From the NCBI GenBank assembly GCA_902795215.1, contig CADBKG010000013.1:1-36705 (forward strand): a DNA stretch of 36,705 nucleotides, read 5' to 3'. Numbering within the stretch: the stretch's first letter is position 1; every line of letters starts with the position of its first letter. This DNA is from an uncultured Erysipelotrichaceae bacterium (GTDB lineage: Bacteria; Bacillota_I; Bacilli_A; RF39; UBA660). The notes under the pieces are model-generated. The model was not told the origin of the DNA, did no database searches, and saw nothing but the letters and a program-made list of their open reading frames with translations. Below are positions 15,133 through 36,705 of this stretch, one piece after another. The position numbers and the translations under genes were made by a program.

Positions 15133-15161
15133 ATTTTATCACAAATAAAAAAGATATGCAA
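15133..15161 (-). promoter_or_regulatory. tRNA-Glu/Gln promoter nested in a terminator
   Basis: Minus strand TTGCAT (15156-15161), a 17-base spacer ending in TGTGA and TAAAAT (15133-15138), 21 bases before tRNA-Glu. The -35 box falls in the loop and 3' arm of the preceding gene's terminator. Confidence 0.68.
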
Positions 15162-15173
15162 TTGGCATATCTT
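15144..15173 (-). terminator. Terminator of the AAA/SipW operon
   Basis: AAGATATGC/GCATATCTT (9 pairs, 5-base loop) then a T run on the minus strand. It overlaps the TAA stop of the last gene of the operon at 15172-15174. Confidence 0.9.
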
Positions 15174-15930
15174 ATGGGTTTTGAGGTTGATTGCTAGTAT
15201 CATCAAGTTGTTTTACTTCAAGATCCATATTTATAACAAGTGAGTTCTCTCCACCTGATGCTTTAAATCTAGCGCTTTTTTCTCCCCAATATGTATCAGC
15301 ATCGTTGCCTTCCATGTATAAACCACTTGCAACAAGAGAATCATAATTAGCGCTTGTAGCGACAGTCATAACGTAATCATTACCGTTTTTAACATAATAT
15401 GTATATCCACTTTGATATTCATACAAACCATTAATCTTAACATATGAATTTGTTGGTTCATAAGGCCATGTAAGCGATATATCAAATGTTGCAGTACTTC
15501 CTTCTGAAATAGTTTCAGTAGAACTTGCAAGAGTTAATACATAAGGGGTTTCATTTTGAATCATAGATAATACTTCATCTGCAGTTGGACTAGTGCTATC
15601 TGTATACTCTACTCCAAAAAGAGTTACCTTTTTAATAGTATATTCAAAGTGAGCATCTACCCCACTTCTATTTCTTACAGTATATGTTTTAGTAAAATCA
15701 GGCATTCCTGGTTTCATATCTGTTATTTCAAGTGTAATAGCTTCAACTATGTTATTATTATCCATAAATGTTACGTCCCAGCTTACTACACTCGCCCTTA
15801 AATCTGTATTAACTTTTGATATATAAATAAACCATGCTAAGGTATTTAATCCAAACAAAAAGACAAGCAATAAAATGCTTTTTAAGCGTATTTTATTTCG
15901 TCTTGATAACCTTTTTTTATTGCTTGCCAT
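15172..15930 (-). CDS. TasA/camelysin-like exported protein (probable SipW substrate)
   Basis: A 252-aa protein with a strongly basic start (MASNKKRLSRRNKIRLK), one hydrophobic segment at about 18-37 (ILLLVFLFGLNTLAWFIYIS) and a long beta-rich external domain, the layout of SipW-processed TasA/camelysin matrix proteins. Typical traits are LRASVVSWDVTFMD just past the helix, ITDMKPGMPDFTKTYTVRNRSGVDAHFEY (the camelysin-type strand pair) and a low-complexity end (DDTSNQPQNP). It ends the five-gene AAA/SipW operon, 5 bases after the signal peptidase, which makes it the likely substrate. AAAGGA lies 9 bases before the ATG. Confidence 0.8.
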   Translation of the reverse strand: MASNKKRLSRRNKIRLKSILLLVFLFGLNTLAWFIYISKVNTDLRASVVSWDVTFMDNNNIVEAITLEITDMKPGMPDFTKTYTVRNRSGVDAHFEYTIKKVTLFGVEYTDSTSPTADEVLSMIQNETPYVLTLASSTETISEGSTATFDISLTWPYEPTNSYVKINGLYEYQSGYTYYVKNGNDYVMTVATSANYDSLVASGLYMEGNDADTYWGEKSARFKASGGENSLVINMDLEVKQLDDTSNQPQNP

Positions 15931-15935
15931 TTATT

Positions 15936-16499
15936 TTATTCCTTTCTTTTAAGTTTTGGTATTTTACTTTGCTCTTCTTTTTCTTTTTGTCTTTCAAGTA
16001 TATTATCTGCAATATCTAAAAAGATAGTTACAACAAGTGGAACAAATACAAAGAAGAAGAACGTTATTTTATTATTCACTAGTCTTGTTAAGAAAGAATA
16101 TATCTTAAACTTATATTCTACTTTACCAAGTATTCTATCTTTTGTAATAGGATTATCACTTATCTCGTTGGCGTCTCCCTTGGTTGTTATTTCTCCTGTT
16201 TCATCATTTATATTTACTATTCTATGGGTTACAGTATAATTAGTATTTGCATAAGTTATAACATCGCCAACTCTTAAATTATCAGGATTAGTTTCCTTTA
16301 TTAGAATTACATCATACACTTTATAAGCTGGATCCATTGAACCTGTTCTAATAGTGTAAATTCTATATCCTTTAATTCCGTTTTGACTTATTCTTTCTAC
16401 TACTGCAAACACAAGATAAATAACTAAAAGTATATAAAATATAGTTCTAATTATTCCAAATACTGTCTTAAATATTTTGTTTTCAAAGAGTTTTTTCAT
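15936..16499 (-). CDS. sipW: Signal peptidase I, SipW (ER) type
   Basis: A membrane serine protease that cuts signal peptides of exported proteins. It is 187 aa: an N-terminal helix (about 15-35), the catalytic domain with IRTGSMDPAY (Ser54) and VTHRIV (His92 where ordinary bacterial enzymes have Lys), KGDANEISD with the conserved Asp109, and a C-terminal helix (about 140-165) with a basic tail. The Ser-His pair marks the SipW class, which handles TasA-type substrates. Its ATG overlaps the stop of the DUF2357-like gene (ATGA), and a TasA-like gene follows at once. A second SipW of different length is coded at 30302. Confidence 0.93.
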   Translation of the reverse strand: MKKLFENKIFKTVFGIIRTIFYILLVIYLVFAVVERISQNGIKGYRIYTIRTGSMDPAYKVYDVILIKETNPDNLRVGDVITYANTNYTVTHRIVNINDETGEITTKGDANEISDNPITKDRILGKVEYKFKIYSFLTRLVNNKITFFFFVFVPLVVTIFLDIADNILERQKEKEEQSKIPKLKRKE

Positions 16500-17593
16500 T
16501 GGTCACCCCTTAATATATTGATTGAATCACTAAAATATGAATTTAAATTACCAAGTTTTCTGTTAAATATTTCTGCAATTTTTTTGTTCCTTTCTTGTGT
16601 TTTAACTTGTGTTTCTTCAAACTCTTTTTTAAATACTGCTTTCATTTTAGAAGCTAGTAATTTATCATCTATATCAAGTATATCTTCTATTACTTTTGAT
16701 ATAGCCATATTAATCATTTTCTTTTCACTATCAATAGTTCCTTCACTATTTATATCATTAAGTGCAAGATATTGAATCAAGAATGCATCATCAAATTTTG
16801 TTTTAATTTCACCTTGATCCATATAATCATTATTACTAGTTTCTCTTCTTACATCATCCTTATCATAACTTTGTAAGTAATTCCATAAGTCATTCGCTTT
16901 TTGAAAATTAGGATTTTTTCTAATAGCATTAGTCTTTTTAATTGGAGATCTAACTTCTGGTGTATGCATTCTCTCTAGTGTTACATACATTTCAGAATTT
17001 CTAAATCCATCCAAAGCATTTTTAATACCCCTTAACCTATCTTCGATAGAACCTTTTGATTTATCTAAATTTTCATCATTGCTACTTATATTTTTAGAAG
17101 AAAAACTAACAGATATAGTAGTGTTATCATTACCTATTTTAGCACTTGCTTCATATGTTGCATTTTTAATATCTTTTAAATATGCACCACCAAGCAAGTT
17201 CTCTTTATGCATATCGTAAAAGTTAGACATATTTTTTATTAAAGTATAAACAAATCTATTTTCGTATACGTCTAAACTTTCTTCTTTATTAATATTTAAT
17301 ACTTTCGCAGGTTTTACATCATTTGTTTTAAGGTCGATATCCTGTATTAAATTTGTATGTTGAGTTAAATATATAATACTTTCTACTGTTACTTTTTTTG
17401 ACTTTTCAACAGGCACAACCTCTTCTTCATTTACAATAAATTTTTTTGGATTTCTTAAAATATTGTCAATATATGGAATTGTTTCTTCAAACATTTCAAG
17501 CCATGTATAATCTAGTACTTTACTATCATAATTTGTCTTAATATGTAAAGAAGATTCAAGCCCTTTTGTAAATATATCTCTTTTATCATCCAT
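16496..17593 (-). CDS. DUF2357-like partner of the McrB-like ATPase
   Basis: A 365-aa soluble protein. The stretch EESLDVYENRFVYTLIKNM (about 104-122) matches the core of DUF2357, found in proteins coded beside McrB-type AAA+ ATPases, where it is usually fused to a PD-(D/E)XK nuclease. Here the C-terminal half is helical and charged (from about 265), and I see no D...ExK motif, so the nuclease seems to be absent. The gene is 3 bases after the ATPase gene and overlaps sipW by 4, so all are translated together. The likely role is as a McrC-like regulator or adaptor for the ATPase; this is inference. Confidence 0.68.
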   Translation of the reverse strand: MDDKRDIFTKGLESSLHIKTNYDSKVLDYTWLEMFEETIPYIDNILRNPKKFIVNEEEVVPVEKSKKVTVESIIYLTQHTNLIQDIDLKTNDVKPAKVLNINKEESLDVYENRFVYTLIKNMSNFYDMHKENLLGGAYLKDIKNATYEASAKIGNDNTTISVSFSSKNISSNDENLDKSKGSIEDRLRGIKNALDGFRNSEMYVTLERMHTPEVRSPIKKTNAIRKNPNFQKANDLWNYLQSYDKDDVRRETSNNDYMDQGEIKTKFDDAFLIQYLALNDINSEGTIDSEKKMINMAISKVIEDILDIDDKLLASKMKAVFKKEFEETQVKTQERNKKIAEIFNRKLGNLNSYFSDSINILRGDQ

Positions 17594-17596
17594 ATA

Positions 17597-19156
17597 CTAC
17601 ACCATCTTTTTCATTCTAAGAAGGTACTCTTTACATTCTTTAAAGTTTTCTTTTCCAAATTCTTGGTCTAAGAATTTAACAAAACCATCTATTTCATCAC
17701 GAATATAAGCAAGATTTAATTGTTCAAATTTTCTTAAAATCTTTCTTGCTATAAAGTAATCTATACCATCTACTTCTTTTCCACCACATGCTATATACGC
17801 TGCGACAAATTCATTCATCTGCTTTACAATACGATTACCAAAAGCTATTCTGAAATGTTTAATAACATAGTCATCCATACGATTGATTTTCTCTTGGTTT
17901 TCATCTGATATTCGATTATTCTTTTTAGCATCTTCATATAAGCTTTCAAGGTAAGAAGAATTTATATCAAGCGCTTCTGTATCTACAGGTTTAAATACTT
18001 GTCCTTTATCGTTAATATCTATAGGCATAGCACGGTCGTATACCTTATCTGTAACTGCGAATGTTGAATCATCGTTGTTAATTGTTCCTATATACCACAT
18101 ATTGCCAGGAATTTGTAATTTTCCATCAGTTAGTTTCACTGGGTCAGTATCCCAATGACTTGAAACAAGTTCGATAATCCATTCATCACGGCTTGGCATT
18201 TCAAGGATTGATAACATCTCTGCAAAATAGTATTCCACACGAGCGATATTCATTTCATCTAGTACCGTTACATAAACATCATCAGTATATCCAGCTTCAT
18301 ATAAACCTTTTAGTACTTCTGTTTCATTAAATTTCTTAGTGAATTCATTGAAGTATCCAAATAGTTCTGTTCTATCTCTCCATGATGGTTGAACGGAAGC
18401 TATTATTGCATCGTGTTTTATAAATTTACCCCAAGCATAAGCAAGTGAAGTTTTACCAGTACCAGAGATACCTTGTAAGATGATTAATCTTGTACATGCG
18501 AATGATGAAATAAATATTCTAATCATTTCTTCAGTATAATATAGTCCTAATTTAGATGCTGCAAAATTTCTAAATGTTGTAACAAGTTCTGGTAAAGTAA
18601 AGCTGTTACCATAATTTTGAATTTTATAATTAGCAAACTCTATATCAACATCATGTAACTTAGTAAATCTAACGTTATCAAGATTCATATTTTCTAGGTC
18701 TTCACCAGTTTCTTCTATAGCTTCTACTTCAGTAGAATTAGCATTTTGAAGCATACTACTTCCATCCCCAGGTTTTAATCCTAGATTAGAAACTTTCATT
18801 GCAAGTAATTTTTCTTTTTCTAAAACTAATGTATTAACTTGTTTATTTAAAACTGCTATTTCATTAAGCATGCTTTCTTGTTCAACAAGTGTTTTTCTAA
18901 ATCTAATATATTTTTTTACTAAAAATACAATTAAAAGAATAACAAGTGCAAGCAAAACAAGTACTACAAGGGCAGTTATTATAGCTAGTACATAACCAGA
19001 AACTGTAAATTCTCTTTTATAGAAGTTAAATACTTTTAAGTACTCTGGAAAATTAAACATCATTATAAATCCAGAAACTATACCTTTTAATATAGTTACA
19101 ACTCCCTTAATAAATACACCAATAAATTCATATAAGAAATTCATAAATGTTCCCAT
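17597..19156 (-). CDS. Membrane-anchored McrB-like AAA+ ATPase
   Basis: A 519-aa protein. Residues 8-35 are hydrophobic and may lie in or on the membrane; a strong helix spans about 54-80 (LAIITALVVLVLLALVILLI); a coiled coil follows at about 85-120; the AAA+ module starts near 185. It has Walker A GISGTGKTS (229-237), Walker B with the McrB signature VTVLDEMNIARVEYYF (296-311) and the sensor/arginine region GTINNDDSTFAVTDKVYDR (357-375). McrB-type ATPases work as ring motors with a partner, here presumably the DUF2357-like protein. Usual McrB proteins are soluble with DNA-binding heads; this one has membrane helices instead. AGGAGGTG stands 5 bases before the ATG. All genes around it concern the cell surface. 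Confidence 0.88.
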   Translation of the reverse strand: MGTFMNFLYEFIGVFIKGVVTILKGIVSGFIMMFNFPEYLKVFNFYKREFTVSGYVLAIITALVVLVLLALVILLIVFLVKKYIRFRKTLVEQESMLNEIAVLNKQVNTLVLEKEKLLAMKVSNLGLKPGDGSSMLQNANSTEVEAIEETGEDLENMNLDNVRFTKLHDVDIEFANYKIQNYGNSFTLPELVTTFRNFAASKLGLYYTEEMIRIFISSFACTRLIILQGISGTGKTSLAYAWGKFIKHDAIIASVQPSWRDRTELFGYFNEFTKKFNETEVLKGLYEAGYTDDVYVTVLDEMNIARVEYYFAEMLSILEMPSRDEWIIELVSSHWDTDPVKLTDGKLQIPGNMWYIGTINNDDSTFAVTDKVYDRAMPIDINDKGQVFKPVDTEALDINSSYLESLYEDAKKNNRISDENQEKINRMDDYVIKHFRIAFGNRIVKQMNEFVAAYIACGGKEVDGIDYFIARKILRKFEQLNLAYIRDEIDGFVKFLDQEFGKENFKECKEYLLRMKKMV

Positions 19157-19158
19157 GC

Positions 19159-20238
19159 TTACACCTCCTTCTTACTTATTTTAAATTCACTATACATTAT
19201 TTCTTTTCCTTCTAGAGTATAATTTTTTAATTGTTTCTTTTGATCTTCTCTTATATTATCAAGTATTATATAATCAAAAGTTTTATCTACTATAAAACTA
19301 TCTAGTCTAGTATTTACTTCTTTAATTCTTGATACATCTAAGAGGCACGCATATTTGTAATTTTTAATCTCTTTTATAGAAGTTCTATTTGTATTGTAAT
19401 CATTAAATCTTAGTGTAAAAATAATATACTTTCTAGATACAGGATTATCTACATATTTTTTTATATCCTCAATTATATATTTGTTTAAATACTCTGTTTT
19501 AAGTTCTAAAAAGTAGTAATCTCCTTCTCTTTTTCTAAGTAATCTTCTAAGTATAATACTATTAATAATATTTAATTCTAATTTTAGTTTTTCTCTATAT
19601 ACTTCTTTAGAATTAATAACTTTATCAAGAACTATTTTTTTATGCTTCTCAAGTTCTCTAAAATGCGCTTTCATTTTAACTTTGCATCTATTTTCATATT
19701 TTTGATAATATTTAAACCTTAATCTTACACTATCAGTTTCTAGGGATTTTAAGTATTTTTTAGTGTTTTCTTCAACCTTTTTAACTTCCCTAATTAGTTT
19801 ATTAACATTGTCTTTAGGAATCTTTATTATATTACTTTTTGCTTCTATTATTTTTTTTATTATTTCTTCATAATCTTTTATAAGTTCACATTTAGAATAA
19901 TCTTGTAAGTCCGCAATAATTGCAATGGTAATAAAGGTATGAGCAAGTGATATTGATCTTTTAATATTATTATTTATTTTTCCTTTTTTTTCTTCTTTAT
20001 AAATAAGTTCATAGTATTTTCCTTTTAATTCTTTAGATATATCACTTGTACTTGTTTCAAAATAAGGTTTATATTCTATTGTTTCAAAGCTTTCTAAATA
20101 GTATGAGTCTACATATACATTTGCATACTCAGATAGATAGTAATCTTTGTTTTCCATAGTAAAACCTTCACTTAAAAGAGAAGCATATTTAATGATAAAT
20201 TCTTTTTTTATATCAAAAAATTCCTTTACTATGTCCAT
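19159..20238 (-). CDS. Unknown protein leading the AAA/SipW operon
   Basis: No family recognised. It is 359 aa with no signal peptide; a single moderately hydrophobic stretch (SLAHTFITIAIIADL, about 97-111) is too short and mixed to call a membrane helix. The middle (about 120-235) is lysine-rich and helical, likely a coiled coil. The C-terminal third looks like an alternating strand-helix domain (YYFLELKTEYL, KYIIFTLRFND, KYACLLDVSRIK, FDYIILDNI). GAGGT stands 6 bases before the ATG. Only 2 bases separate it from the AAA+ gene, so it is very probably a third component of that system. Confidence 0.6.
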   Translation of the reverse strand: MDIVKEFFDIKKEFIIKYASLLSEGFTMENKDYYLSEYANVYVDSYYLESFETIEYKPYFETSTSDISKELKGKYYELIYKEEKKGKINNNIKRSISLAHTFITIAIIADLQDYSKCELIKDYEEIIKKIIEAKSNIIKIPKDNVNKLIREVKKVEENTKKYLKSLETDSVRLRFKYYQKYENRCKVKMKAHFRELEKHKKIVLDKVINSKEVYREKLKLELNIINSIILRRLLRKREGDYYFLELKTEYLNKYIIEDIKKYVDNPVSRKYIIFTLRFNDYNTNRTSIKEIKNYKYACLLDVSRIKEVNTRLDSFIVDKTFDYIILDNIREDQKKQLKNYTLEGKEIMYSEFKISKKEV

Positions 20239-20266
20239 ACTAATACCTCTTTATTATCCTTATAAA

Positions 20267-20296
20267 ATTATATCATATTATGTAGAATTTTAGCAA
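20267..20296 (-). promoter_or_regulatory. Promoter of the AAA/SipW operon
   Basis: Minus strand TTGCTA (20291-20296), an 18-base spacer ending in TGA and TATAAT (20267-20272; extended -10). It lies directly after the terminator of the glycine-rich protein gene. Confidence 0.75.
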
Positions 20297-20302
20297 GCAT
20301 AG

Positions 20303-20340
20303 AAAAGCCCCTCTTTCCTATATTAGGAAGGAAGGGTTTT
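20303..20340 (-). terminator. Terminator of the glycine-rich protein gene
   Basis: A 13-bp stem (one G-U pair, one mismatch) between CCCTTCCTTCCTA and TAGGAAAGAGGGG with loop ATA, followed by CTTTTCT on the minus strand. The TAA stop (20323-20325) is at the hairpin apex. Confidence 0.82.
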
Positions 20341-21765
20341 ACCTATCCATTGTATTTTGATAGCACCACCCGTTGAAGAAGGATTCAAGTTAGTTAATTT
20401 GCTGGTTATACTTGATGGAAGATTAGAGTATGTTACACCACTTGCAATAAAGGATGAACCTCCTCCGCCACCACCAGCGCCAGCGTTTGTTATTGCGTTA
20501 GCAACGTATCCGCCGCCACCTCCGTAGTAGCCAGCGCCTCCGCCTCCACCACGTTTATCGGCATTTCCACCAGTTAACAATGATCCCGATGTTGCGGAGC
20601 TTCCTCCTGCAGCACCACCAGTTGTCGATCCTCCACGGCCATAAGCTGAACCAGAAACTGCAGTACCATTACCACCGGAAAATACGGTTCCAGCAGTAAT
20701 AGTCGTTTTTGTAGAAGACATAGTTCCACCAGTTCCACCTTCACCACCGGCTTGAGTGCTTAGTGTTTGTCCTCTGGCAGAACTTCCTCCGCCTCCACCA
20801 GCGATTATTTTTACTATTCCATTATTAATATTAGTTTGATTTATAGCGGTTCCTCCAACAGCGAATGCGGAATATCCACCTCCGCCACCTCTGTGACCTG
20901 ACATTCCTGATGAACCAGTTTCACCACCAGTACCTCCGCCATTGGCACCTCCTGGAGCAAGCCCTCTATCTTGGCCTCCATTACCGCCAGCAGTAGAGTA
21001 TACTTTTGTGTTATATGGAATATAAACAACTCCATATACATATCCATTTGGGCCACCATTAGTATTATCATCATCACCAACACCACCATGGCCACCCCAG
21101 GCTTCTACTAAATAATATCCAGGGTGCCAATTTGTTGTTGTATATGTTCTTGCAGTAGTATTAGAAGTATTTGCAATAGATCCTGTTATCCATGGTCTTT
21201 CATTTAATGTTATAGTTTTTGTTGTATCCTCTGCAGTCATAACATAAGTTTCTTCATAATCATTATATGTTCCACTTGTTTCAGTATAATAATATTCAGG
21301 ATCGGAGACTGTTATTGTTACAGTTTTGCCTTTTCTTATTCCTGTTGAAAGTGGTACTGTTCCAGTTGCAATTACTGTATCACCATTTTTGATAGTCGCA
21401 ACTGCATTTTCTGCGTTTGAAGTTACTGTTAATACACCATTTCTATCATAGTAAAGATTACATATAGTAGAAAAATTAATTAAAGCATAAATCGACAAAT
21501 CATCATTTTGACCAATAACTCCTCTAGAACATTCCTGATTAGTTTTTTCAACATTTAAATAATATCCTTCACTAGGTAAAGTTCTGCCCTCTTGTGGTTG
21601 ATATACGCCATCTTCATCTTTAATATAAAACTTATATACCGTTCTTTGAACTTCAAAATTAGCTTTATGATTTTTTATAAGTTGTTCTACCATTAAACTT
21701 GTTGATAAAAAGGCTAAAACCGCAAATACTATAAATTCAACTTTTTTAAGTTTCTTATTCTTCAT
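20323..21765 (-). CDS. Secreted glycine-rich protein (ALK-type Gly-rich domain)
   Basis: A 480-aa exported protein. A basic start and one helix at about 9-26 act as signal or anchor. Residues 35-190 form beta-rich domains, including VYKFYIKDEDGVYQPQEGRTLPSEGYYL and a PEGA-like AVATIKNGDTVIATGTVPLS. From about 190 to the end lies a glycine-rich domain: GYYLVEAWGGHGG, then GGGGGYSAFAVGG, GGGGGAGYYGGGGGY and AGGGGGGSSFIASG, the pattern of the Gly_rich/ALK family. Its codon and base use are much more GC-rich than the surroundings because of GGN codons. AGGGAG stands 4 bases before the ATG. It follows the lectin-like gene by 9 bases, as the last gene of that unit. Confidence 0.82.
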   Translation of the reverse strand: MKNKKLKKVEFIVFAVLAFLSTSLMVEQLIKNHKANFEVQRTVYKFYIKDEDGVYQPQEGRTLPSEGYYLNVEKTNQECSRGVIGQNDDLSIYALINFSTICNLYYDRNGVLTVTSNAENAVATIKNGDTVIATGTVPLSTGIRKGKTVTITVSDPEYYYTETSGTYNDYEETYVMTAEDTTKTITLNERPWITGSIANTSNTTARTYTTTNWHPGYYLVEAWGGHGGVGDDDNTNGGPNGYVYGVVYIPYNTKVYSTAGGNGGQDRGLAPGGANGGGTGGETGSSGMSGHRGGGGGYSAFAVGGTAINQTNINNGIVKIIAGGGGGSSARGQTLSTQAGGEGGTGGTMSSTKTTITAGTVFSGGNGTAVSGSAYGRGGSTTGGAAGGSSATSGSLLTGGNADKRGGGGGAGYYGGGGGYVANAITNAGAGGGGGGSSFIASGVTYSNLPSSITSKLTNLNPSSTGGAIKIQWIGKTLPS

Positions 21766-21774
21766 ATTTGCTCC

Positions 21775-23076
21775 CTAATGAACCACAAATGGATTTGAAC
21801 TTGTTCCTGTACCTGTTAATGTGGCAACTGCTTCCTGTGAAATGTTTATAACAGGAACGACTTTTATTCCTTCGTCATCAGTAACATCCTCATAACCCAA
21901 TTCTCCAGTATAATTAACTACACCAAGTGTAGCATCAATATCATTTTTGTCATATTTAAAAGGCGTACCAGTCCAATAATAAGTATTTTTATATAAATAT
22001 GACTTATTATTATTGTTATTATAATTTAATCCTCCCATTACAACTTCATCTAATGTTATTAAGCCTATTCTTTTTGATAAAGAACTATTTCCAACGTTTG
22101 AATCATTAAGCGTGAATCTATCATTTTTTTGTACACATGTTACTTCAGGTGATTTATTAATATAATTTCTTTTATAAGCTGAATAATAAGTTGTTTCCTT
22201 TTTTATTCCCAAACCATCACCTTCTTGTATGCTTCTATCATAACAAAACTCTGTATCCGAAATATATTTTTCAACAGTAGTACCGCTTAAATTATTTGTA
22301 TACCAATTTTCTAAAAAAGTTTTAATACCACTTGAATTACTATTAGCATGTGTTGCTTCATATGTGGAACTATTTGGTGAACCATACATATAACCAACAT
22401 ATGCGTTATCATCATCATTTTGATTGACTGGTATTTCCCCAAGTGTTTCTATTGCAGTCGCACTTGTTCCAGCATATAAAAGTCTTAAACTTTCATCACC
22501 ATTTATTCTAACTATTCTCCAATACAAATCTTGATTACTAGAATTCTTTCCAAATTGGATATAATTGGTTGTTGCAGCACCTCTCCAGTAATAGCTTGTG
22601 CCATAATCATCTTGCGTGGAATATAATCCTTCATCAGTAGTAGCGACTTGACTAAAGTCTGGCGTTCCAGAATTAACTTGAATACTAGGATTTAACGCTT
22701 GAAGCAATTGTAGAGTAGTAGCAGTCGATGCGCTTTCACTTAAATCAAATTTAAGAGTGCATGTATCCGTACCACCAGTAAATGTAATTGCTTTAGCTTC
22801 GTTTTGAGTTATAACTCCTCCATTTTCGCATTCATAACTTGATAAAACATAACCATTTTTAGGGAATGTGCTACCATTATATTCAACGTAGTTAGAAGAA
22901 CCTTCTGATTCTTGTACTAGTATTTTATAATCTGCTTTTTCAAGTATTGTTTCCTTTTTTTGAGCAAACAAAAGAATATTTATTACTGCCGTAATAAAGA
23001 AAATAGCTTTAAAGTATTTAGTATATTTAGTTATATCTATCTTCTCTTTTGTCTTCAAAATATACGCCTTCCCCAT
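21775..23076 (-). CDS. Surface protein with a DUF6273-like C-terminal domain
   Basis: A 433-aa exported protein. A basic start is followed by one membrane helix (about 23-40) and a 60-residue beta module (YKILVQESEGSSNYVEYNGSTFPKNGYVLSSYECENGG). From about 160 comes a domain with YYWRGAATTNYIQFG, LYWRIVRINGDESLRLLYAG, AYVGYMYG, FLENWYTNNLS, DTEFCYDRS, RIGLITLDEVVMGG, a Tyr-Trp-Thr-Gly motif, and VVPVINISQ before the closing TGTGTSSNPFVV. The same order of motifs recurs in the VWA protein at 33537. It resembles DUF6273/formylglycine-enzyme-like folds, tentatively. TATAAT ends 7 bases before the ATG with no ribosome site; a TTG six codons on has a purine-rich stretch before it and is an alternative start. 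Confidence 0.72.
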   Translation of the reverse strand: MGKAYILKTKEKIDITKYTKYFKAIFFITAVINILLFAQKKETILEKADYKILVQESEGSSNYVEYNGSTFPKNGYVLSSYECENGGVITQNEAKAITFTGGTDTCTLKFDLSESASTATTLQLLQALNPSIQVNSGTPDFSQVATTDEGLYSTQDDYGTSYYWRGAATTNYIQFGKNSSNQDLYWRIVRINGDESLRLLYAGTSATAIETLGEIPVNQNDDDNAYVGYMYGSPNSSTYEATHANSNSSGIKTFLENWYTNNLSGTTVEKYISDTEFCYDRSIQEGDGLGIKKETTYYSAYKRNYINKSPEVTCVQKNDRFTLNDSNVGNSSLSKRIGLITLDEVVMGGLNYNNNNNKSYLYKNTYYWTGTPFKYDKNDIDATLGVVNYTGELGYEDVTDDEGIKVVPVINISQEAVATLTGTGTSSNPFVVH

Positions 23077-23083
23077 TATATTT

Positions 23084-23089
23084 ATTATA
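23084..23089 (-). promoter_or_regulatory. Extended -10 box of the surface-protein gene
   Basis: TGATATAAT on the minus strand (TGN plus a perfect -10 box), 7 bases before the ATG at 23076. No good -35 is visible, but extended -10 promoters can do without one. The spacing implies a leaderless mRNA. Confidence 0.5.
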
Positions 23090-23147
23090 TCATTGTAAAT
23101 GGGGTAAAACTATCAACAAGGAAGGTTGAATTGTTGCAATTTAATGA

Positions 23148-24080
23148 CTAGCTTGCCCCATCAACAGATACACTTATAATGCTAGTTCCACTTTTTCCAT
23201 CATAAGAATAATCCTGCGAAGTATCGGCTTTATAAAAAATTATTTTTTTAGTAGAAGAAGCGGTTATTGGTATAGTTATTTTTTTAACATAGTTATGTGA
23301 TTCAATAACTTCTGTAGATTCACTTGCTTTATTATCAAGATACAAATTATTTGTCATATCAATTCTAAGTAAATTTGGATCATATGTAAGCGTTACTATA
23401 GCACTTTTACATTTCTTTTTATTTGCATCTGATAAATTATTATATTCATCAATACTTACATGGTCTCCAACGGATTTTCCGTCAAAAGCCTCTGTAACCT
23501 CATAAAATGTAAAAGCATTTTTAAGTTCCAATGTTAAATATTTGGAATTAGGGCTATCATCTATGATATATGAAAATGAATAAGTAACAACGTGTAAAAT
23601 ATAAGTTGTTTTAAGTGTTTTTTCATATGGCGAAGTGCTGCTTGCGTTAATGGTTATAGTTGCAGTATCGCCACTTCCAATATTTCCATTAGGTAAAACA
23701 GTAATTGTAAAACTATCAGCATTTGTTTCCTTTGAAATATTACCTGTTTGCTTATTTGTGGAGCATGTCACATTACTAGAACAATTAAAACTTGTATTGT
23801 AATTAATATCGGCTTCTGTTTTTATAAATTTGTTTTTCTTAGAGCTCAAATCAAGAGTTATTTCATAAGCATTAACTCCATCCCAATTAGAAATATTATG
23901 GCTTGTTCCTAGAGTACTCATTGTAGTCGAAGTAAAATAAAAACCTTTCGCTTCTAAGATATGATTTCTAGTGTAATCATACACATATCTTGCAAGAGAA
24001 ATAACTACTCCAAAAGTAATAATTAATACTGCCGAAAACAAAATTAAAGTTTTTTTATCTTTTAAATTCATCTTTTTCAT
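23148..24080 (-). CDS. TasA-like exported protein, third gene of the unit
   Basis: A 310-aa protein with a basic start (MKKMNLKDKK), a membrane or signal helix at about 10-29 (TLILFSAVLIITFGVVISLA) followed by RYVYDYTRN, as in the SipW-type substrates here that have an ARY motif after the helix. The rest is beta-rich with repeated ITVLPNGNIGSGDTATITINASS-like strands, and two Cys (NCSSNVTC) that could bridge. AGGTGA lies 3-4 bases before the ATG. It follows the previous gene by 7 bases. A weak stem (CAACAA/TTGTTG) lies after the stop, but I do not call it a terminator. Confidence 0.72.
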   Translation of the reverse strand: MKKMNLKDKKTLILFSAVLIITFGVVISLARYVYDYTRNHILEAKGFYFTSTTMSTLGTSHNISNWDGVNAYEITLDLSSKKNKFIKTEADINYNTSFNCSSNVTCSTNKQTGNISKETNADSFTITVLPNGNIGSGDTATITINASSTSPYEKTLKTTYILHVVTYSFSYIIDDSPNSKYLTLELKNAFTFYEVTEAFDGKSVGDHVSIDEYNNLSDANKKKCKSAIVTLTYDPNLLRIDMTNNLYLDNKASESTEVIESHNYVKKITIPITASSTKKIIFYKADTSQDYSYDGKSGTSIISVSVDGAS

Positions 24081-24087
24081 AATTCAC

Positions 24088-24726
24088 CTATATTACTTGT
24101 TTAGAGTTAACTATAACAGTTACACTTTCTATTTTATTTGCATATTCAAGATTGTTTTTATAAGCTTCTGGAAAGTTTACAACTAAATAATATGAATCTG
24201 TGGTTTTAGTATTATATTTAAATAAAGACGGTGTGTTTAAAGTAAATACATTATACCAAGCATTACTTTCATCTTGTTTTACCTCTTTACTAGTAAGTAG
24301 ATTTGTTCCAGGATTTTCATTTTTATATAATTTATAATTTAACGGAAGGTTGGTAGTTGTAACAATTTTCATAGTATATTCCAAATCCACATTTGAAGTT
24401 TTATTATCTTTAAAATTTGCCACTGTAAAAAGATATGTGTACTCTTCACTTGATGGTAAGATTCCTTCTATATCCATATCAAATTTATATTCCCCTTCAT
24501 CAAGAATATATAAGGCTGCAACTACATCTAATTTCATAGCTTTTTTAGAATAATATCTTGCATAAGAAGCACTTATTAACTTAATCCCTAAAATAAGTCC
24601 AGTAATTATTAGACATGACAAAACTAAGAATCTAGCCTTATATTTTTTATCTTTTACAGTAAGATTCCTTTTTATTTCTCTAATATTATGTCCTAAAATT
24701 TTAAATTTTTCTTTTAATTTTAACAT
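24088..24726 (-). CDS. TasA-like exported protein, second gene of the unit
   Basis: A 212-aa protein. A long basic cytoplasmic start (about 30 residues, with IREIKRNLTVKDKKYKAR) precedes one helix at about 33-50 (LVLSCLIITGLILGIKLI), followed by SASYARYYSKKAMKLDVVAALY, a probable SipW-type cleavage region. The external part has the camelysin-type pattern YTYLFTVANFKDNKTSNVDLEYTMKI and a closing SVTVIVNSKQ strand. AGGAGA stands 6 bases before the ATG. The upstream stop is 1 base away, so the two are translationally coupled. No signal peptidase is coded in this unit; those at 15936 or 30302 would have to act on it. Confidence 0.75.
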   Translation of the reverse strand: MLKLKEKFKILGHNIREIKRNLTVKDKKYKARFLVLSCLIITGLILGIKLISASYARYYSKKAMKLDVVAALYILDEGEYKFDMDIEGILPSSEEYTYLFTVANFKDNKTSNVDLEYTMKIVTTTNLPLNYKLYKNENPGTNLLTSKEVKQDESNAWYNVFTLNTPSLFKYNTKTTDSYYLVVNFPEAYKNNLEYANKIESVTVIVNSKQVI

Positions 24727-24727
24727 A

Positions 24728-25336
24728 TTATTCTCCTACATATGGAACTATGCTTTCACCATTATATTGAATTGCTTCAAACTCTAAATTAATTAAACTT
24801 GCTTTTATACTCTCTGTTCCAACAAGTGAATCAAAATCATTATTACTTTCATCATTAATCCATTCAAGTTCTATTTTAACATTTTCTTTTTTATTACTTC
24901 TTATTTTATTCAAAGTAAATAATCCTGTATAAGTATTAGGGCCTGTTTTAGTTAAATCTCCATCGCTTGAACTAACATTTGTAACATTTAATACAGCGTT
25001 AGAATTAGTATTTTTATCTTCATATGTAATATTATATAAAAATGCCACATCTGTACCATTTGGATCAATTGTAATTGTTGCTTCACCTTTCATGCCTGGC
25101 GCTACTACTCCAGAAGCCGTATGTTCATTTGATTCAAACATTACATTATCTATTAATATCTCTTTTGTTTGAATGCTTCCTAAATTTGTATTATTAACAA
25201 GGATATTCCACTTTCCAATAGGTATTCTTGCATTAGCTTTTACATCACTTTCAAGCAAGGCAAAGCTTTTACTTATGAAAAAAATTAAAGCAAAAACTAT
25301 AAATAAAGAAATTAATACTTTATCAATCTTTTTCAT
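24728..25336 (-). CDS. TasA/camelysin-like exported protein, first gene of the unit
   Basis: A 202-aa protein with a clear signal-like start (MKKIDKVLISLFIVFALIFFISKSFALLES) and a TasA-like beta domain: ARIPIGKWNILVNN, GVVAPGMKGEATITIDPNGTDVAFLYNI (the usual camelysin strand pair) and VKIELEWINDES. The ATG at 25336 has GAGGTG 4-5 bases before it; the GTG four codons upstream overlaps that site. It leads a three-gene unit with 1- and 7-base gaps. TATAAT boxes lie just upstream, without a good -35 box. Confidence 0.78.
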   Translation of the reverse strand: MKKIDKVLISLFIVFALIFFISKSFALLESDVKANARIPIGKWNILVNNTNLGSIQTKEILIDNVMFESNEHTASGVVAPGMKGEATITIDPNGTDVAFLYNITYEDKNTNSNAVLNVTNVSSSDGDLTKTGPNTYTGLFTLNKIRSNKKENVKIELEWINDESNNDFDSLVGTESIKASLINLEFEAIQYNGESIVPYVGE

Positions 25337-25390
25337 ATAGCACCTCACTTATTATAATACCTCTAGTATAATATTACCATAAATTAAAGA

Positions 25391-28021: not shown

Positions 28022-28870
28022 CTATTTTTCATTGCTTTCTATTTTTTCGATATCCATAATATGTTTGTTGTCCGTTAATATATTTAATTCTCTCCTTGCA
28101 AAACAGTTTAATTTTTCAAGTCTTTTATTCTGTGGTATTCCATTGTCAATCATACTTGCATTTAATATTTCTAAATTACTTAATACTATTAAATGAAGAA
28201 TATCTGTATAATCTCTGATATTTCCTATTAATTTTGGATTTGATTCTCTCCACTCTTTTGCGGTCATACCAAATAATGCAACATTTATAACATCAGCTTC
28301 ATCAGCATAAACAAATTGTTTTTGTTTTTCTGTTAATTTAGGTACAATGTTTTGTTTAATACTATCTGTATGTATTTTATAATTTGTTTTTGATAACATT
28401 CTTCGAACTGACCATTCTATTTTACTGTGATAACTTTCATCTTGCTTTAGTCTCTCAAATTCTTTGATTAAATAAAGTTTGAAAGCCGGATCAATCCAAG
28501 AAGCAAATTCTAACGCAATATCAGGATGTGCAAATGTACCACTATTATATTTTCCTCTTTTACTTACAAATCCTATAGCATTTGTCCTATTTATCCACCT
28601 TGATGGACTCATTGTAAATGATTGCTCGCTAGAACTCTTTTTAAACTCGCGAGATTCCGCTAGTTTAAATTCTTCATTAAATAATTCTTCCCATAGCGAA
28701 TAATAATCAAAAGAGCTTTTGTTGCTCATCCATTTGATTATTACATCTCCAGGATTATCAGGATTTTTATATCTTGCTAAATCTGTCAAACATATATAAT
28801 CTTCATTATCTACCCTCATTATCCTAATTTCATTTTCGTTAATGTTTAAAACCGTTGTGACACTTTTCAC
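28022..28870 (-). CDS. KilA-N domain protein
   Basis: A 282-aa DNA-binding protein. KilA-N is a phage- and virus-type domain at about residues 20-135 here: ICLTDLARYKNPDNPGDVIIKWMSNK, then WINRTNAIGFVSKRGKYNSGTFAHPDIALEFASWIDPAFKLYLIKEF, which is the core signature. The C-terminal half (from about 160, FVYADEADVINVALFGMTAKEWR) is typical of stand-alone chromosomal KilA-N proteins. The GTG at 28870 was chosen because AGGAGG lies 6 bases before it. It is the first gene of a two-gene accessory unit with the Rpn nuclease. Its role is unknown; phage-derived regulation or defence is possible. Confidence 0.87.
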   Translation of the reverse strand: MKSVTTVLNINENEIRIMRVDNEDYICLTDLARYKNPDNPGDVIIKWMSNKSSFDYYSLWEELFNEEFKLAESREFKKSSSEQSFTMSPSRWINRTNAIGFVSKRGKYNSGTFAHPDIALEFASWIDPAFKLYLIKEFERLKQDESYHSKIEWSVRRMLSKTNYKIHTDSIKQNIVPKLTEKQKQFVYADEADVINVALFGMTAKEWRESNPKLIGNIRDYTDILHLIVLSNLEILNASMIDNGIPQNKRLEKLNCFARRELNILTDNKHIMDIEKIESNEK

Positions 28871-28963
28871 TAGTAACCTCCTTTCTAATTTTAAATTTTT
28901 GTGTTTCTTTTTTCCAACCCCTCTATTATTATTATTCAAGATAGATTTCATTTTTCTTAATTT

Positions 28964-29030: not shown

Positions 29031-29053
29031 AAAAAAACTCTCATTTCTGAGAG
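29031..29053 (-). terminator. Terminator of the surface operon
   Basis: CTCTCA/TGAGAG (29048-29053, 29038-29043) with a GAAA loop, followed by seven T on the minus strand. The TGA stop of the last gene is part of the 3' arm. A GAAA tetraloop adds stability. Confidence 0.9.
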
Positions 29054-29688
29054 CTTGTTTGTTTTCTTTTATGAAGTAATAGAATAATTGCAACGCCAAC
29101 AATAATTAACGCACTTAATATTATAAAAGTATAGCTGTTTTTAGAAGTTATAGGCACTTTTATAATTTCTTTTACTTCATCATTATATTCAGCATAAAAT
29201 GTCCAATCAACTAAAGAATATTCATCATTTTCAGTATTATCATAATCAGTGTCTAAAGTAGTAACCACTTTTAATGTATATGTATGTTTTGCACTAACCA
29301 TTCCGATTTTAGCAGCTTCACTTAGATTAACACCAGTATTATTATAATCAACGCCAGAAGCAATACCATCATATATAAGATTATTATCTAAATATATTTG
29401 CATCTTAAGCTTTGAAAGCAGCTCTCTTGCTTCTTCGGCATCACTTTTTGGTTTAAGTTTTAAATATAAAGTATAATCTGTATTAGTTCCGTTTTCTATA
29501 ACCAAAGTATCTTCATTAACACTTCCTGGAACTAAATCAAGATGTTTCATAAATGAATTATCATTTATAGCAGAATCATAATATAATCTTCCATTAGTTT
29601 CCGTAAAGTAAAGTTTATTATTATCTGCATATACAAAACTTAACCAAAATAATGAAATAAATAATAATATATTGAATATTCTTTTCAT
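29041..29688 (-). CDS. Surface protein with signal peptide and degenerate sortase-type tail
   Basis: A 215-aa protein. A signal peptide (MKRIFNILLFISLFWLSFVYA, cleavage after about 21) leads into a beta-rich domain with camelysin-like traits (LVPGSVNEDTLVIENGTNTDYTLYLKL). The end has VPITS, then a hydrophobic helix (about 186-205, IILSALIIVGVAIILLL) and a basic HKRKQ tail: the layout of an LPxTG cell-wall sorting signal, but with VPITS instead of LPxTG. It may be a membrane anchor or suit a divergent sortase. GGAGG stands 5 bases before the ATG. It is the last gene of the operon starting at 33434. Confidence 0.78.
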   Translation of the reverse strand: MKRIFNILLFISLFWLSFVYADNNKLYFTETNGRLYYDSAINDNSFMKHLDLVPGSVNEDTLVIENGTNTDYTLYLKLKPKSDAEEARELLSKLKMQIYLDNNLIYDGIASGVDYNNTGVNLSEAAKIGMVSAKHTYTLKVVTTLDTDYDNTENDEYSLVDWTFYAEYNDEVKEIIKVPITSKNSYTFIILSALIIVGVAIILLLHKRKQTSSQK

Positions 29689-29700
29689 TGTTTCCTCCTA

Positions 29701-30321
29701 TTAGCTTATACTAACACTTGTTGACCAAGCTTCTTGATAAGCATCAAACTGAACAGTTTCTACTTTAATAGTTAAAGTATATGTTCCTCCTGCATAACCA
29801 CCTGCTTGAGTTGTACATGTTACAGTAGTACCAGCAGCATTTGATTCACATGACTGATTGGCACTTAAAGTAACATTTTCATTGAATGTAACAGATTTAA
29901 TAAATGATGTAGTGCTTTGATTTTTAGTAAGTTTAGTTTTATAGTAATAGTAATTACCATCTTTAGTCCATTTACTGTTTAAATCATCAGCATAATTTAT
30001 TACTGCAGCAGTTACTCCATTTGTTGTAAGTGCAAGTGGATTATTTGATGCATCTTTCCATTCTTCTGTATAAGAAACTCTAACTGCAACATCTACATCA
30101 CCGGTATTCTTTGCAATAACAGTTTTATCAGTAGTAGTACCTGGAGTCCAATTTTCAGGACTTACAAAAGTTTCTGTAATTTCAGTACTATAAGGTTTAG
30201 TTTTAAACTGATTACTGAAAGTTGCTTCGCTTGTAAAATAAGCTATTGTACCTCCAACAAGCCCAACAAGAAGCGCTAATGCAATTGCAATTAGTGGTTT
30301 ATTATTCTTTTTTTGTTCCAT
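29701..30321 (-). CDS. BsaA-like SipW-dependent exported protein
   Basis: A 206-aa protein of the SipW-dependent/BsaA matrix type. A basic start and helix (about 8-26, PLIAIALALLVGLVGGTIA) run into AYFTSEATFSNQFKTKPYSTEITETFVSPENWTPG, a very characteristic opening, followed by KTVIAKNTGDVDVAVRVSYTEEW. Two Cys late in the chain (SCESNAAGTTVTC) may form a disulfide. GGAGA precedes the ATG. The gene overlaps the end of sipW by 20 bases, so enzyme and likely substrate are made together. Confidence 0.88.
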   Translation of the reverse strand: MEQKKNNKPLIAIALALLVGLVGGTIAYFTSEATFSNQFKTKPYSTEITETFVSPENWTPGTTTDKTVIAKNTGDVDVAVRVSYTEEWKDASNNPLALTTNGVTAAVINYADDLNSKWTKDGNYYYYKTKLTKNQSTTSFIKSVTFNENVTLSANQSCESNAAGTTVTCTTQAGGYAGGTYTLTIKVETVQFDAYQEAWSTSVSIS

Positions 30322-30811
30322 TTTGATCTCCTTTCTTTTTTTCTATATCTAAAGTATTACTAAATAAATACTCTGATATCAAAATTATAGCAACTATTAA
30401 TATTAAATAAACATTCTCATTTGCAAATTTAACATAATATCCTACATAAGGGATAGATATAGAATCTTTTCCAACTATTTGTTCATAGTTAATTAGTAGT
30501 GGATCAGCAACTTCATTAGCATCACCCTTAGTTTCATATTTTCCATTTTCTATTTTGTTTATTCTATGGGAAACATATTCCTTTTTTGTATCTGTTTTGA
30601 AAGTTATAATATCTCCCTCTTTTAAATCAGATTCACTAACTTTATGATAATAAATAACGCTGCCTGTTTTTATACTTGGTTCCATAGACCCAGAAAGTAC
30701 TACAAGTGGATTATATCCCATTACCATTGGTAAACATATAAGAGCATATATTCCAACCAAAATATAACAAAGATTAGCTAGAACATGAACTATTTTTTTT
30801 AAGATGCCCAC
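30302..30811 (-). CDS. sipW: Signal peptidase I, SipW (ER) type, second copy
   Basis: A 169-aa membrane protease with helices at both ends (about 10-32 and 132-150). Catalytic VLSGSMEPSI (Ser42), VSHRI (His82 in place of Lys) and KGDANEVAD (Asp97) put it in the Ser-His SipW class. It is shorter than the copy at 15936 and differs clearly in sequence, so the two are old paralogues and may have separate substrates. It starts with GTG at 30811 after a GGGGCGG stretch and overlaps the preceding gene by 13 bases. BsaA-like genes lie directly on both sides. Confidence 0.93.
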   Translation of the reverse strand: MGILKKIVHVLANLCYILVGIYALICLPMVMGYNPLVVLSGSMEPSIKTGSVIYYHKVSESDLKEGDIITFKTDTKKEYVSHRINKIENGKYETKGDANEVADPLLINYEQIVGKDSISIPYVGYYVKFANENVYLILIVAIILISEYLFSNTLDIEKKKGDQNGTKKE

Positions 30812-31395
30812 GTTACCGCCCCGTTATTTATTGTCGCTGTTTTACCCCAAACATTATTTATAGCTTTAGAGTCTGCTTGAACAGCTTCATAATTAACATC
30901 TAATTCATAATTGTATGTATGATATTCATTACTATAAACTGATCCATTAACTAAAGATTCATTGAGAGCAATACTATTTAATATAGTAACTGCTTTTTGA
31001 GAATCTAGAGTCTTTTTATAATAATACCAACCATCATCTTTTAATTCAAAATCATTATTAAAATCACTTGTATAATTTTTTGTAACAACACTTTGACCAT
31101 TTATAGTATTACTAAGTGTTTTAGTAGTACCTTCCACTACCTTGCTCCAATTTTCTGTAAAATTAACTCTAATAACTACAGGAGTATTAGTAGCTTCTTC
31201 GTTTTTTATAGTAACCTTTTTAGTACCAAACTGATTATGAAAATCTTCTTCTAGCTTAATATTATATGTCATAGTTTTAAATCTATTTGGTAAACTAACT
31301 TCTTCAAGATAGTATGCAAATGTTCTTCCAACAACAAATATTGATAATATAGCAAGTAAATATATAAGAGGTTTATTTTTCTTTAATTTTTTCAT
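30799..31395 (-). CDS. BsaA-like SipW-dependent exported protein
   Basis: A 198-aa relative of the protein at 29701. It has a basic start, a helix at about 9-26 (PLIYLLAILSIFVVGRTFA), then AYYLEEVSLPNRFKTMTYNIKLEEDF, aligned with the opening of that protein, then VTIKNEEATNTPVVIRVNFTENW and a GWYYYKKTLDSQKAVTILNSI stretch that matches NYYYYKTKLTKNQSTTSFIKSV. The two are clear paralogues on each side of a SipW gene, like the tapA-sipW-tasA order in Bacillus. Its ATG overlaps the stop of the adhesin gene (TAATG), with GGAGG just before. Confidence 0.87.
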   Translation of the reverse strand: MKKLKKNKPLIYLLAILSIFVVGRTFAYYLEEVSLPNRFKTMTYNIKLEEDFHNQFGTKKVTIKNEEATNTPVVIRVNFTENWSKVVEGTTKTLSNTINGQSVVTKNYTSDFNNDFELKDDGWYYYKKTLDSQKAVTILNSIALNESLVNGSVYSNEYHTYNYELDVNYEAVQADSKAINNVWGKTATINNGAVTWAS

Positions 31396-33434: not shown

Positions 33435-33536
33435 AAGCGCACCTACCTTATCTATTTAATTTTACCACAAGCATTACAGAAAATCTATACATTTTAGTTC
33501 ATTTGTAACTATAAATTTAAAGAAACTTTAGTCATA

Positions 33537-36705
<3,169 letters not shown>

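What the first reader, a model, noticed from the sequence alone, without database searches (positions are those of the whole stretch)
15172..20238. Membrane McrB-like AAA+ ATPase in an operon with SipW and a TasA-like protein
Five genes in one tight unit (gaps of 2, 3, -4 and 5 bases) join an unknown 359-aa protein, a McrB-signature ATPase with membrane helices, a DUF2357-like protein with no visible nuclease motif, a Ser-His signal peptidase and a TasA-like substrate. McrB/DUF2357 pairs are known as type IV restriction systems, in which the partner cuts DNA. Here the nuclease is missing, the ATPase is tied to the membrane, and the companions work at the cell surface. The simplest reading is an AAA+ motor re-used for assembly, secretion or quality control of an extracellular fibre. 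A membrane-based defence system is the alternative. I know of no described system with this composition.
Basis: partly seen in the sequence, partly recalled or inferred. Interest (0 to 1): 0.85.

Follow-up and report, generated by a model that had tools for sequence, protein, structure and literature searches.

The report
Membrane McrB-like motor for surface fibres
A gut bacterium carries a membrane-anchored motor related to a DNA-defence enzyme, but the motor is wired to the enzyme that releases surface-fibre proteins and to a degenerate relative of a bacterial signalling domain, so a defence machine appears to have been rebuilt to control what is put on the cell surface.

Summary
Five tightly packed genes encode a 359-aa protein (X), a membrane McrB-like AAA+ NTPase, a DUF2357 protein with no visible nuclease, an ER/archaeal-type signal peptidase (SipW-like) and a SipW-type substrate. 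The kind is not undescribed: Bell et al. 2024 (eLife) named it CoCoPALM in one paragraph and left it uncharacterised.

New here:
(1) The SipW link is near-universal: SipW lies within four genes of the ATPase in 77 of 80 named loci.
(2) The unit is the core of a larger operon, about 15172-25348, with three more exported proteins upstream.
(3) X folds as a helical part plus a degenerate EAL domain (pLDDT 92; VIA Z up to 14.5; all 50 listed rows EAL), although sequence searches miss it.
(4) X is fused behind SipW in 16 loci, placing it in the cytosol beside the peptidase.
(5) Loci without X often carry EAL or GGDEF-EAL genes on the same strand (28 of 60); X loci never do (0 of 76).

Best reading: a McrB-derived membrane machine controlling SipW-dependent fibre export or assembly, with an EAL-fold regulatory subunit. 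Defence is unlikely but not excluded. Nothing is shown by experiment. Known kind, new variant.

The parts
19159..20238 (-). X protein, 359 aa: helical N-terminal part plus degenerate EAL-fold domain (residues about 168-359)
   Evidence: ORF; AlphaFold2 pLDDT 92.2, pTM 0.88; VIA Z 14.5 to 4rnf over 182 residues, rmsd 3.4 A, all 50 listed rows EAL or EAL-like; no Pfam match
17597..19156 (-). membrane McrB-like AAA+ NTPase, 519 aa: N-terminal membrane segment and coiled coil, Walker A GISGTGKT, NxD motif NNDD
   Evidence: (PDB hits are McrB, E 3.2e-6, apart from one weak designed coiled coil)
16496..17593 (-). DUF2357 (McrC N-terminal-like) protein, 365 aa, no nuclease domain seen
   Evidence: Pfam E 8.7e-13; model: helical after residue 262; alignment A3
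15936..16499 (-). ER/archaeal-type signal peptidase I (SipW-like), Ser-His
   Evidence: TIGR02228 83.8 bits over cut-off; Ser and His conserved in relatives
15172..15930 (-). putative SipW substrate, 252 aa, N..AWF signal and W.V.F / PGM motif
   Evidence: alignment A4, 20 loci, invariant N29 A32 W33 W51 F55 P74 M76
23148..24080 (-). exported protein p310, upstream partner of the conserved operon
   Evidence: orthologues directly upstream of X in relatives, 51% mean column identity over 20 loci
24088..24726 (-). exported protein p212, upstream partner of the operon
   Evidence: same position and size in relatives; not aligned
24728..25348 (-). exported protein p206, SipW-type signal, upstream partner of the operon
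   Evidence: alignment A6, 12 loci
20323..21765 (-). glycine-rich surface protein (ALK_LTK_GRD domain), local addition between p310 and X
   Evidence: Pfam E 3.1e-16; not in this position in the relatives drawn
21775..23076 (-). exported 433-aa protein, local addition between p310 and X
   Evidence: no Pfam match
20267..20296 (-). promoter-like site before X (TTGCTA-18-TATAAT, extended -10)
   Evidence: number of such sites in the region is at chance level
15151..15173 (-). terminator-like hairpin with T run after the substrate gene
   Evidence: number found (4) is near the shuffled mean (2.8)

Best explanation
The locus is a compact CoCoPALM-type system: a McrB-derived NTPase ring held at the cytosolic face of the membrane by its N-terminal membrane/coiled-coil segment, with the nuclease-free DUF2357 protein as its activating stalk, working with a SipW-type signal peptidase on co-encoded exported proteins that probably build a surface fibre. 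X, a degenerate EAL-fold protein, is the adaptor or regulator that couples the cytosolic motor to the peptidase; in a sister group it is covalently fused to it. Most likely the motor's nucleotide cycle, controlled through X, gates or drives maturation or assembly of the fibre subunits. Shown by computation: gene content, conservation, the SipW link, the X fold, the SipW-X fusion and EAL genes in sister operons. Inferred: ring, stalk role, cytosolic placement, direct contact of X with SipW and the ATPase, and fibre formation. Not shown: what the motor moves and which nucleotide it uses.
For: SipW on the same strand within four genes of the ATPase in 77 of 80 named loci and 18 of 22 family loci; DUF2357 next in 77 of 80 and 22 of 22. 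The window genome has only 9 SipW-type hits in 1.34 Mb. SipW-X fusions in 16 loci, with two membrane segments around the Ser-His domain in 15 and X after them; those in the tree form one clade, SH-aLRT 100. X is EAL-fold. EAL or GGDEF-EAL genes, all on the ATPase strand, in 28 of 60 full-length non-X loci and 0 of 76 X loci; in nine genomes 15 of 50 EAL places lie within 8 kb of an ATPase, 1.06 expected. Exported-protein genes flank nearly every locus. NxD motif in 80 of 80 named loci.
Against: No experiment. The substrate does not match TasA/CalY models, so 'fibre' is inferred from SipW and signals. PADLOC calls the ATPase a defence candidate (PDC-M26A, E 5.1e-38). Four family loci and the tandem ATPase group (18 ATPases) lack SipW nearby. 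The X-EAL link is structural; the sequence profile comparison is weak (probability 7%; a first setting found none). The DUF2357 model is modest (pTM 0.55).
Confidence: 0.62

Rival explanations
1. Membrane-based anti-phage defence. The McrB-like motor senses infection and the membrane/peptidase components act as the effector, so the surface proteins are incidental or are the sensor.
For: McrB/DUF2357 ancestry; PADLOC PDC-M26A E 5.1e-38 on the ATPase; patchy presence, 25 of 98 same-family genomes; a KilA-N gene 28025-28951 that is also a PADLOC candidate (PDC-S22, E 1.1e-111) lies about 3 kb upstream of the operon.
Against: Conserved neighbours are SipW, exported proteins and, in sister operons, EAL genes. 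No full-length match in 50,697 phage or 72,556 plasmid records. No nuclease family in the operon. In the window 9 of the 10 flanking genes scanned match no PADLOC model at E 0.001.
Confidence: 0.13
2. A quality-control or membrane-extraction AAA+ machine that pulls misfolded or unprocessed SipW substrates out of the membrane rather than building fibres.
For: AAA+ fold with membrane anchor and coiled coil; substrates have hydrophobic N-terminal segments; SipW lies next to the machine.
Against: No cytosolic protease partner in the operon. McrB relatives are not known unfoldases (recalled). The presence of EAL regulators fits regulation better than housekeeping.
Confidence: 0.15
3. Neighbours by shared regulation only: a cell-surface regulon in which the McrB/DUF2357 pair has an independent job.
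For: SipW is multi-copy in these genomes (9 hits in the window genome); the tandem group lacks SipW.
Against: Fixed order with overlapping genes, SipW-X fusions, and the association across Bacilli and Clostridia.
Confidence: 0.1

Closest known systems
[quoted passage not shown] 2024, PMC11090510
   Same: NxD-motif McrB-like domain fused to a membrane/coiled-coil segment, DUF2357 partner, signal peptidase genes alongside; read as passages
   Different: The DUF2357 protein here lacks the long coiled coil (365 aa against 501-963 aa in Clostridial and other relatives); an EAL-fold protein X is present, fused to SipW in one group. The main text of the paper does not contain EAL, c-di-GMP, SipW or TasA; its supplements were not available.
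McrBC type IV restriction
   Same: AAA+ domain and DUF2357 partner; the naturally occurring PDB relatives found for the ATPase are all McrB (6hz4, E 3.2e-6)
   Different: membrane anchor, NxD instead of NxxD, no nuclease domain seen, secretion neighbours
tapA-sipW-tasA / sipW-tasA-calY fibre operons of Bacillus (recalled; papers seen only in search listings, and one outline)
   Same: SipW-type peptidase beside its exported substrates
   Different: no AAA+ motor, DUF2357 or EAL-fold partner in the Bacillus operons (recalled); the substrates here do not match TasA/CalY models
LapD/LapG and FimX (degenerate EAL proteins; recalled)
   Same: catalytically dead EAL domain regulating a surface structure, in LapD through a protease; FimX EAL is the best Foldseek match to X
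   Different: different peptidase, topology and organism; c-di-GMP binding by X is unproven and the known motif residues are lost

Membership tests
CoCoPALM | NxD GTPase motif followed by D or E | tested here: met
   NNDD in the window; NxD followed by D/E in 80 of 80 named and 22 of 22 family loci
CoCoPALM | NTPase fused to an FtsB-like transmembrane and coiled-coil domain | tested here: inconclusive
   membrane segment in 80 of 80; FtsL-type models only weakly matched (E 0.25 and 0.035); FtsB homology itself not shown
CoCoPALM | signal peptidase family protein in the neighbourhood | tested here: met
   SipW two genes away in the window; within four genes in 77 of 80 named loci
CoCoPALM | coiled coil fused to the McrC homologue ('usually') | tested here: not met
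   window DUF2357 protein is 365 aa with a single long C-terminal helix; relatives of 501-963 aa have the coiled coil where read. Stated as usual in the paper, not obligatory
CoCoPALM | listed in the authors' supplementary census | not testable with these tools
   supplementary files could not be read
McrBC type IV restriction system | PD-(D/E)xK nuclease in the DUF2357 protein | tested here: inconclusive
   no Pfam nuclease; model helical after residue 262, no strand-rich C-terminal domain, but pTM only 0.55; leans strongly to absent
CoCoNuT | another nuclease gene in the operon when the McrC nuclease is missing | tested here: not met
   no nuclease family among the ten operon genes; X is EAL-fold
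SipW/ER-type signal peptidase I | family model and Ser-His residues | tested here: met
   TIGR02228 83.8 bits, cut-off 51.85; Ser and His conserved. The Bacillus SipW equivalog model is below its cut-off (68.6 against 190)
TasA/CalY (camelysin) fibre subunit | match to the family model | tested here: inconclusive
   252-aa substrate: none in Pfam, NCBIfam or PDB; signal and PGM motif conserved
EAL domain | EAL fold | tested here: met
   Z 14.5-11.5 over 164-186 residues, all 50 listed rows EAL or EAL-like
EAL phosphodiesterase | conserved catalytic residues / Pfam EAL | tested here: not met
   1 of 49 members matches Pfam EAL, E 0.011; alignment A2 has no invariant column
c-di-GMP receptor | binds c-di-GMP | not testable with these tools
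   the window genome has no EAL hit and one GGDEF protein with a DGNEF motif

The most novel reading that the evidence does not exclude
CoCoPALM systems are second-messenger-controlled surface-organelle machines: a restriction-derived AAA+ motor whose EAL-domain subunit reads (or once read) c-di-GMP and thereby switches SipW-dependent fibre assembly. In the Bacilli branch of the window the EAL subunit has lost the motif, become a scaffold, and in one lineage been welded onto the peptidase itself.
Probability: 0.33. Interest if true: 0.87.

Novelty: new variant of a known kind. Interest (0 to 1): 0.72.

Why it matters
It would show a type IV restriction engine taken over for building or controlling the cell surface, and would give the named but uncharacterised CoCoPALM systems a concrete, testable composition: motor, stalk, peptidase, substrates and EAL-fold regulator. 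It also suggests a new output for c-di-GMP-type regulation in Gram-positive gut bacteria and a second job for SipW-type peptidases as docking sites.

Tried and rejected
PD-(D/E)xK fold in X: rejected, the C-terminal domain of X is EAL-fold. PD-(D/E)xK in the DUF2357 protein: not seen; the PDB searches of that model gave no match worth trusting (best VIA Z 5.9, on a lone helix), and McrC itself was not listed, so the comparison is uninformative. A PDB profile search with the DUF2357 alignment returned one designed stem mimic, judged chance.

TasA/CalY homology of the substrates by NCBIfam and PDB: nothing. Sequence homology of X to EAL by profile comparison: none at first, then a weak, collinear match (best piece probability 7%, E 0.005 for one comparison); the claim therefore rests on structure.

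c-di-GMP supply in the window genome: 92 of 98 family genomes have a GGDEF hit, but G083, same genus and with the system, has none; 12 of the 15 GGDEF stretches fetched from relatives carry xGNEF motifs like the window's, two carry GGDEF/GGEEF, one gave no motif. I had first taken the 680-aa protein for the c-di-AMP enzyme GdpP from its length; reading it showed a long N-terminal part, a membrane segment and a GGDEF domain, so that guess was dropped. Presence of GGDEF does not track the ATPase.

Promoter and terminator scans are at chance level. Mobile origin: no full-length relative in phages or plasmids. Counts mix three locus sets (L031-L056, L057-L136, L166-L225) with some genomes in two sets; duplicates were removed only for the tree (172 to 106 sequences at 84% identity). 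ATPases under 380 aa or 60 bits were left out, which drops broken copies and contig ends such as L043, L049 and L055. The tree used the quick method without the mixture model and warned of long branches meeting among the remote rows; only inner starred clades are used. The nine genomes are those I found with matches in both; I copied their places by hand.
Full report
WHAT IS THERE. The five ORFs are intact, on the minus strand, with the stated gaps. The ATPase is McrB-like: Walker A GISGTGKT, LDEMN, and the McrB-family signature in its short NxD form, NNDD; its naturally occurring PDB relatives by profile are all McrB, and NCBIfam gives McrB PRK11331 at E 8.6e-8, far under that model's cut-off. 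Its N-terminus has a membrane segment followed by a stretch that looks like a coiled coil by eye. The next gene is DUF2357 (E 8.7e-13), the domain of McrC that activates McrB (Bell et al., passage). SipW passes TIGR02228. The last gene has a Lys-rich, hydrophobic N-terminus with N..AWF and a W.V.F...PGM motif, invariant or nearly so in 20 loci, like SipW-type signals (recalled), but no family model recognises it.

HOW FAR IT EXTENDS. In the nearest relatives the order is p206, p212, p310 (exported proteins), X, ATPase, DUF2357, SipW, substrate. The window has all of them between 25348 and 15172, with two further exported proteins (20323-23076) inserted between p310 and X. p310 is conserved at 51% mean column identity over 20 loci. 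p212 was judged by place and size only.

CONSERVATION OF CONTEXT. The ATPase is in 25 of 98 same-family genomes. A genome-contig scan gave at least 546 relatives, 80 kept, from Bacilli and Clostridia records, nearly all MAGs. In these 80 loci, SipW is on the same strand within four genes in 77, within two in 72; DUF2357 is the next gene in 77; the membrane segment is in 80; NxD followed by D or E in 80. Of the three without SipW, L108 has one five genes away, and L092/L094 carry a 2,565-2,586-aa exported protein instead. In family loci 18 of 22 have SipW; the four others, and L054, which does have SipW, carry an exported protein with calcium-type DxDxDG repeats. In the phylum sample SipW is near 32 of 39 ATPases over 500 bits, 0 of 11 at 400-500, 6 of 8 at 250-400 and 0 of 13 under 250. 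The 18 ATPases of the tandem group (ATPase-DUF2357-ATPase) have none and lie beside 650-2,200-aa exported proteins. So the SipW link belongs to the membrane family, not to McrB relatives at large. On the tree the label needs 8 changes against 27.7 for shuffled labels. The window genome has 9 SipW-type hits in 1.34 Mb, so such proximity is not background.

WHAT X IS. X evolves fast (13-24% identity to the window over 48 relatives) while the ATPase keeps 52-72%. AlphaFold2 gives pLDDT 92.2 and pTM 0.88. Residues 168-359 match EAL domains: VIA Z 14.5 (4rnf, rmsd 3.4, 182 aligned), 11.5 at rank 50, and every listed row is EAL or EAL-like. Foldseek's first match is FimX EAL, E 3.8e-4. Pfam EAL matches 1 of 49 members at E 0.011, and no column of the alignment is invariant, so the catalytic residues of an EAL phosphodiesterase are not kept. 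A profile comparison aligns X with EAL collinearly but weakly. The N-terminal helical part (1-165) was hardly tested by the fold search.

FUSION. In 16 loci SipW and X are one protein of 646-811 aa: a first membrane segment, Ser and His residues, a second membrane segment (15 of 16 by hydropathy), a linker, then X. As the catalytic domain of this peptidase type faces outside (recalled), X should lie in the cytosol, where the AAA+ domain is expected. The fusions kept in the tree form one clade, SH-aLRT 100; the X-bearing loci plus L092 form one clade of 37 rows, 99, with DUF2357 proteins of 356-410 aa where complete (L121 has a 183-aa contig-end fragment, L105 none).

EAL GENES IN SISTER OPERONS. 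Outside the X clade, full-length loci carry EAL genes within seven genes in 12 of 29 named and 16 of 31 phylum-sample loci; counting only loci with at least five genes in view upstream, 12 of 20 and 13 of 22. X loci: 0 of 76. All 39 EAL proteins found were on the ATPase strand. Several are GGDEF-EAL proteins by Pfam, others are stand-alone EAL; the clostridial ones have altered EAL motifs. In nine genomes 15 of 50 EAL places lie within 8 kb of an ATPase, 1.06 expected (Poisson 7e-13; related genomes are not independent). The exclusion between X and EAL genes follows the tree, so it is one or few events; with the shared fold it suggests that X took the place of an EAL regulator. Tandem (0 of 18), 600-aa (0 of 7) and remote (0 of 13) groups have no EAL neighbour.

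MECHANISM. Proposed: the NTPase forms a ring at the membrane, activated by the DUF2357 stalk as in McrBC; an EAL-fold subunit regulates it and links it to SipW; its output is timed maturation or assembly of exported subunits. In sister operons the regulator may read c-di-GMP. In the window c-di-GMP reading is unlikely: no EAL hit in the genome and its one GGDEF protein has DGNEF. Ring, stalk, placement and fibre are inferences.

COMPARISON. Bell et al. 2024 (PMC11090510; passages and term searches read, not the whole text, no supplements) name CoCoPALM for NxD McrB proteins with an FtsB-like membrane/coiled-coil domain and signal peptidases, usually with coiled coils on both proteins, and defer them to a later paper. 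In the library searched, only that article and its preprint hold the term in this sense (the other eight are unrelated), and no follow-up appeared. The papers that hold McrB and EAL domain together (24, eight listed) look unrelated by title. This locus fits CoCoPALM on two tested features, lacks the McrC coiled coil, and adds X, the fusion and the EAL link.

VERDICT. A real, conserved system of a named but uncharacterised kind, in a new compact variant. The surface-machine reading is favoured; defence is a minority reading, kept alive by McrB ancestry and the PADLOC match.

Noticed in passing
SipW-X fusion proteins, e.g. L040, L045, L098: The cytosolic linker between SipW and X carries one to three copies of a short motif, [DE]-x-[DEG]-K-T-x-x-[FY]-R, in 12 of 16 fusions and in no other protein of the loci scanned; a possible docking or phosphorylation site.
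   Followed up: partly
window 29041-36602: A second SipW cluster: camelysin-like protein (Pfam PF12389 E 1.3e-4, just under its cut-off), SipW, a further exported protein, InlB-repeat protein and a 1,021-aa VWA protein.
   Followed up: partly
window 28025-28951: KilA-N protein matching PADLOC candidate PDC-S22 at E 1.1e-111, next to a 316-aa protein without Pfam match.
   Followed up: no
L186-L194: Tandem ATPase-DUF2357-ATPase operons beside exported proteins of 650-2,200 aa, without SipW: a sister kind.
   Followed up: partly
L044, L050, L051, L052, L054: The SipW/substrate pair after DUF2357 is replaced by a protein with calcium-type DxDxDG repeats and, in most, an N-terminal part before its membrane segment.
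   Followed up: partly
L228-L240 and L226 (G000:C1): A GGDEF protein of about 680 aa with an xGNEF motif in 13 of the 16 stretches read (L226, L228-L242), conserved across the family although probably not a cyclase.
   Followed up: partly
L107 and L133, DUF2357 genes: Clostridial DUF2357 proteins with long coiled coils end in a small domain that resembles the end of DegV-type proteins (recalled, not tested).
   Followed up: no
L043 (G037:C72): ATPase interrupted by a TGA stop in an otherwise normal operon; the same genome has a second, intact ATPase of the calcium-repeat type.
   Followed up: no
L099, L107, L128, L167: The cytosolic tail of the SipW next to the ATPase carries a recurring E-E-Y-[LM]-like motif, seen by eye.
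   Followed up: no
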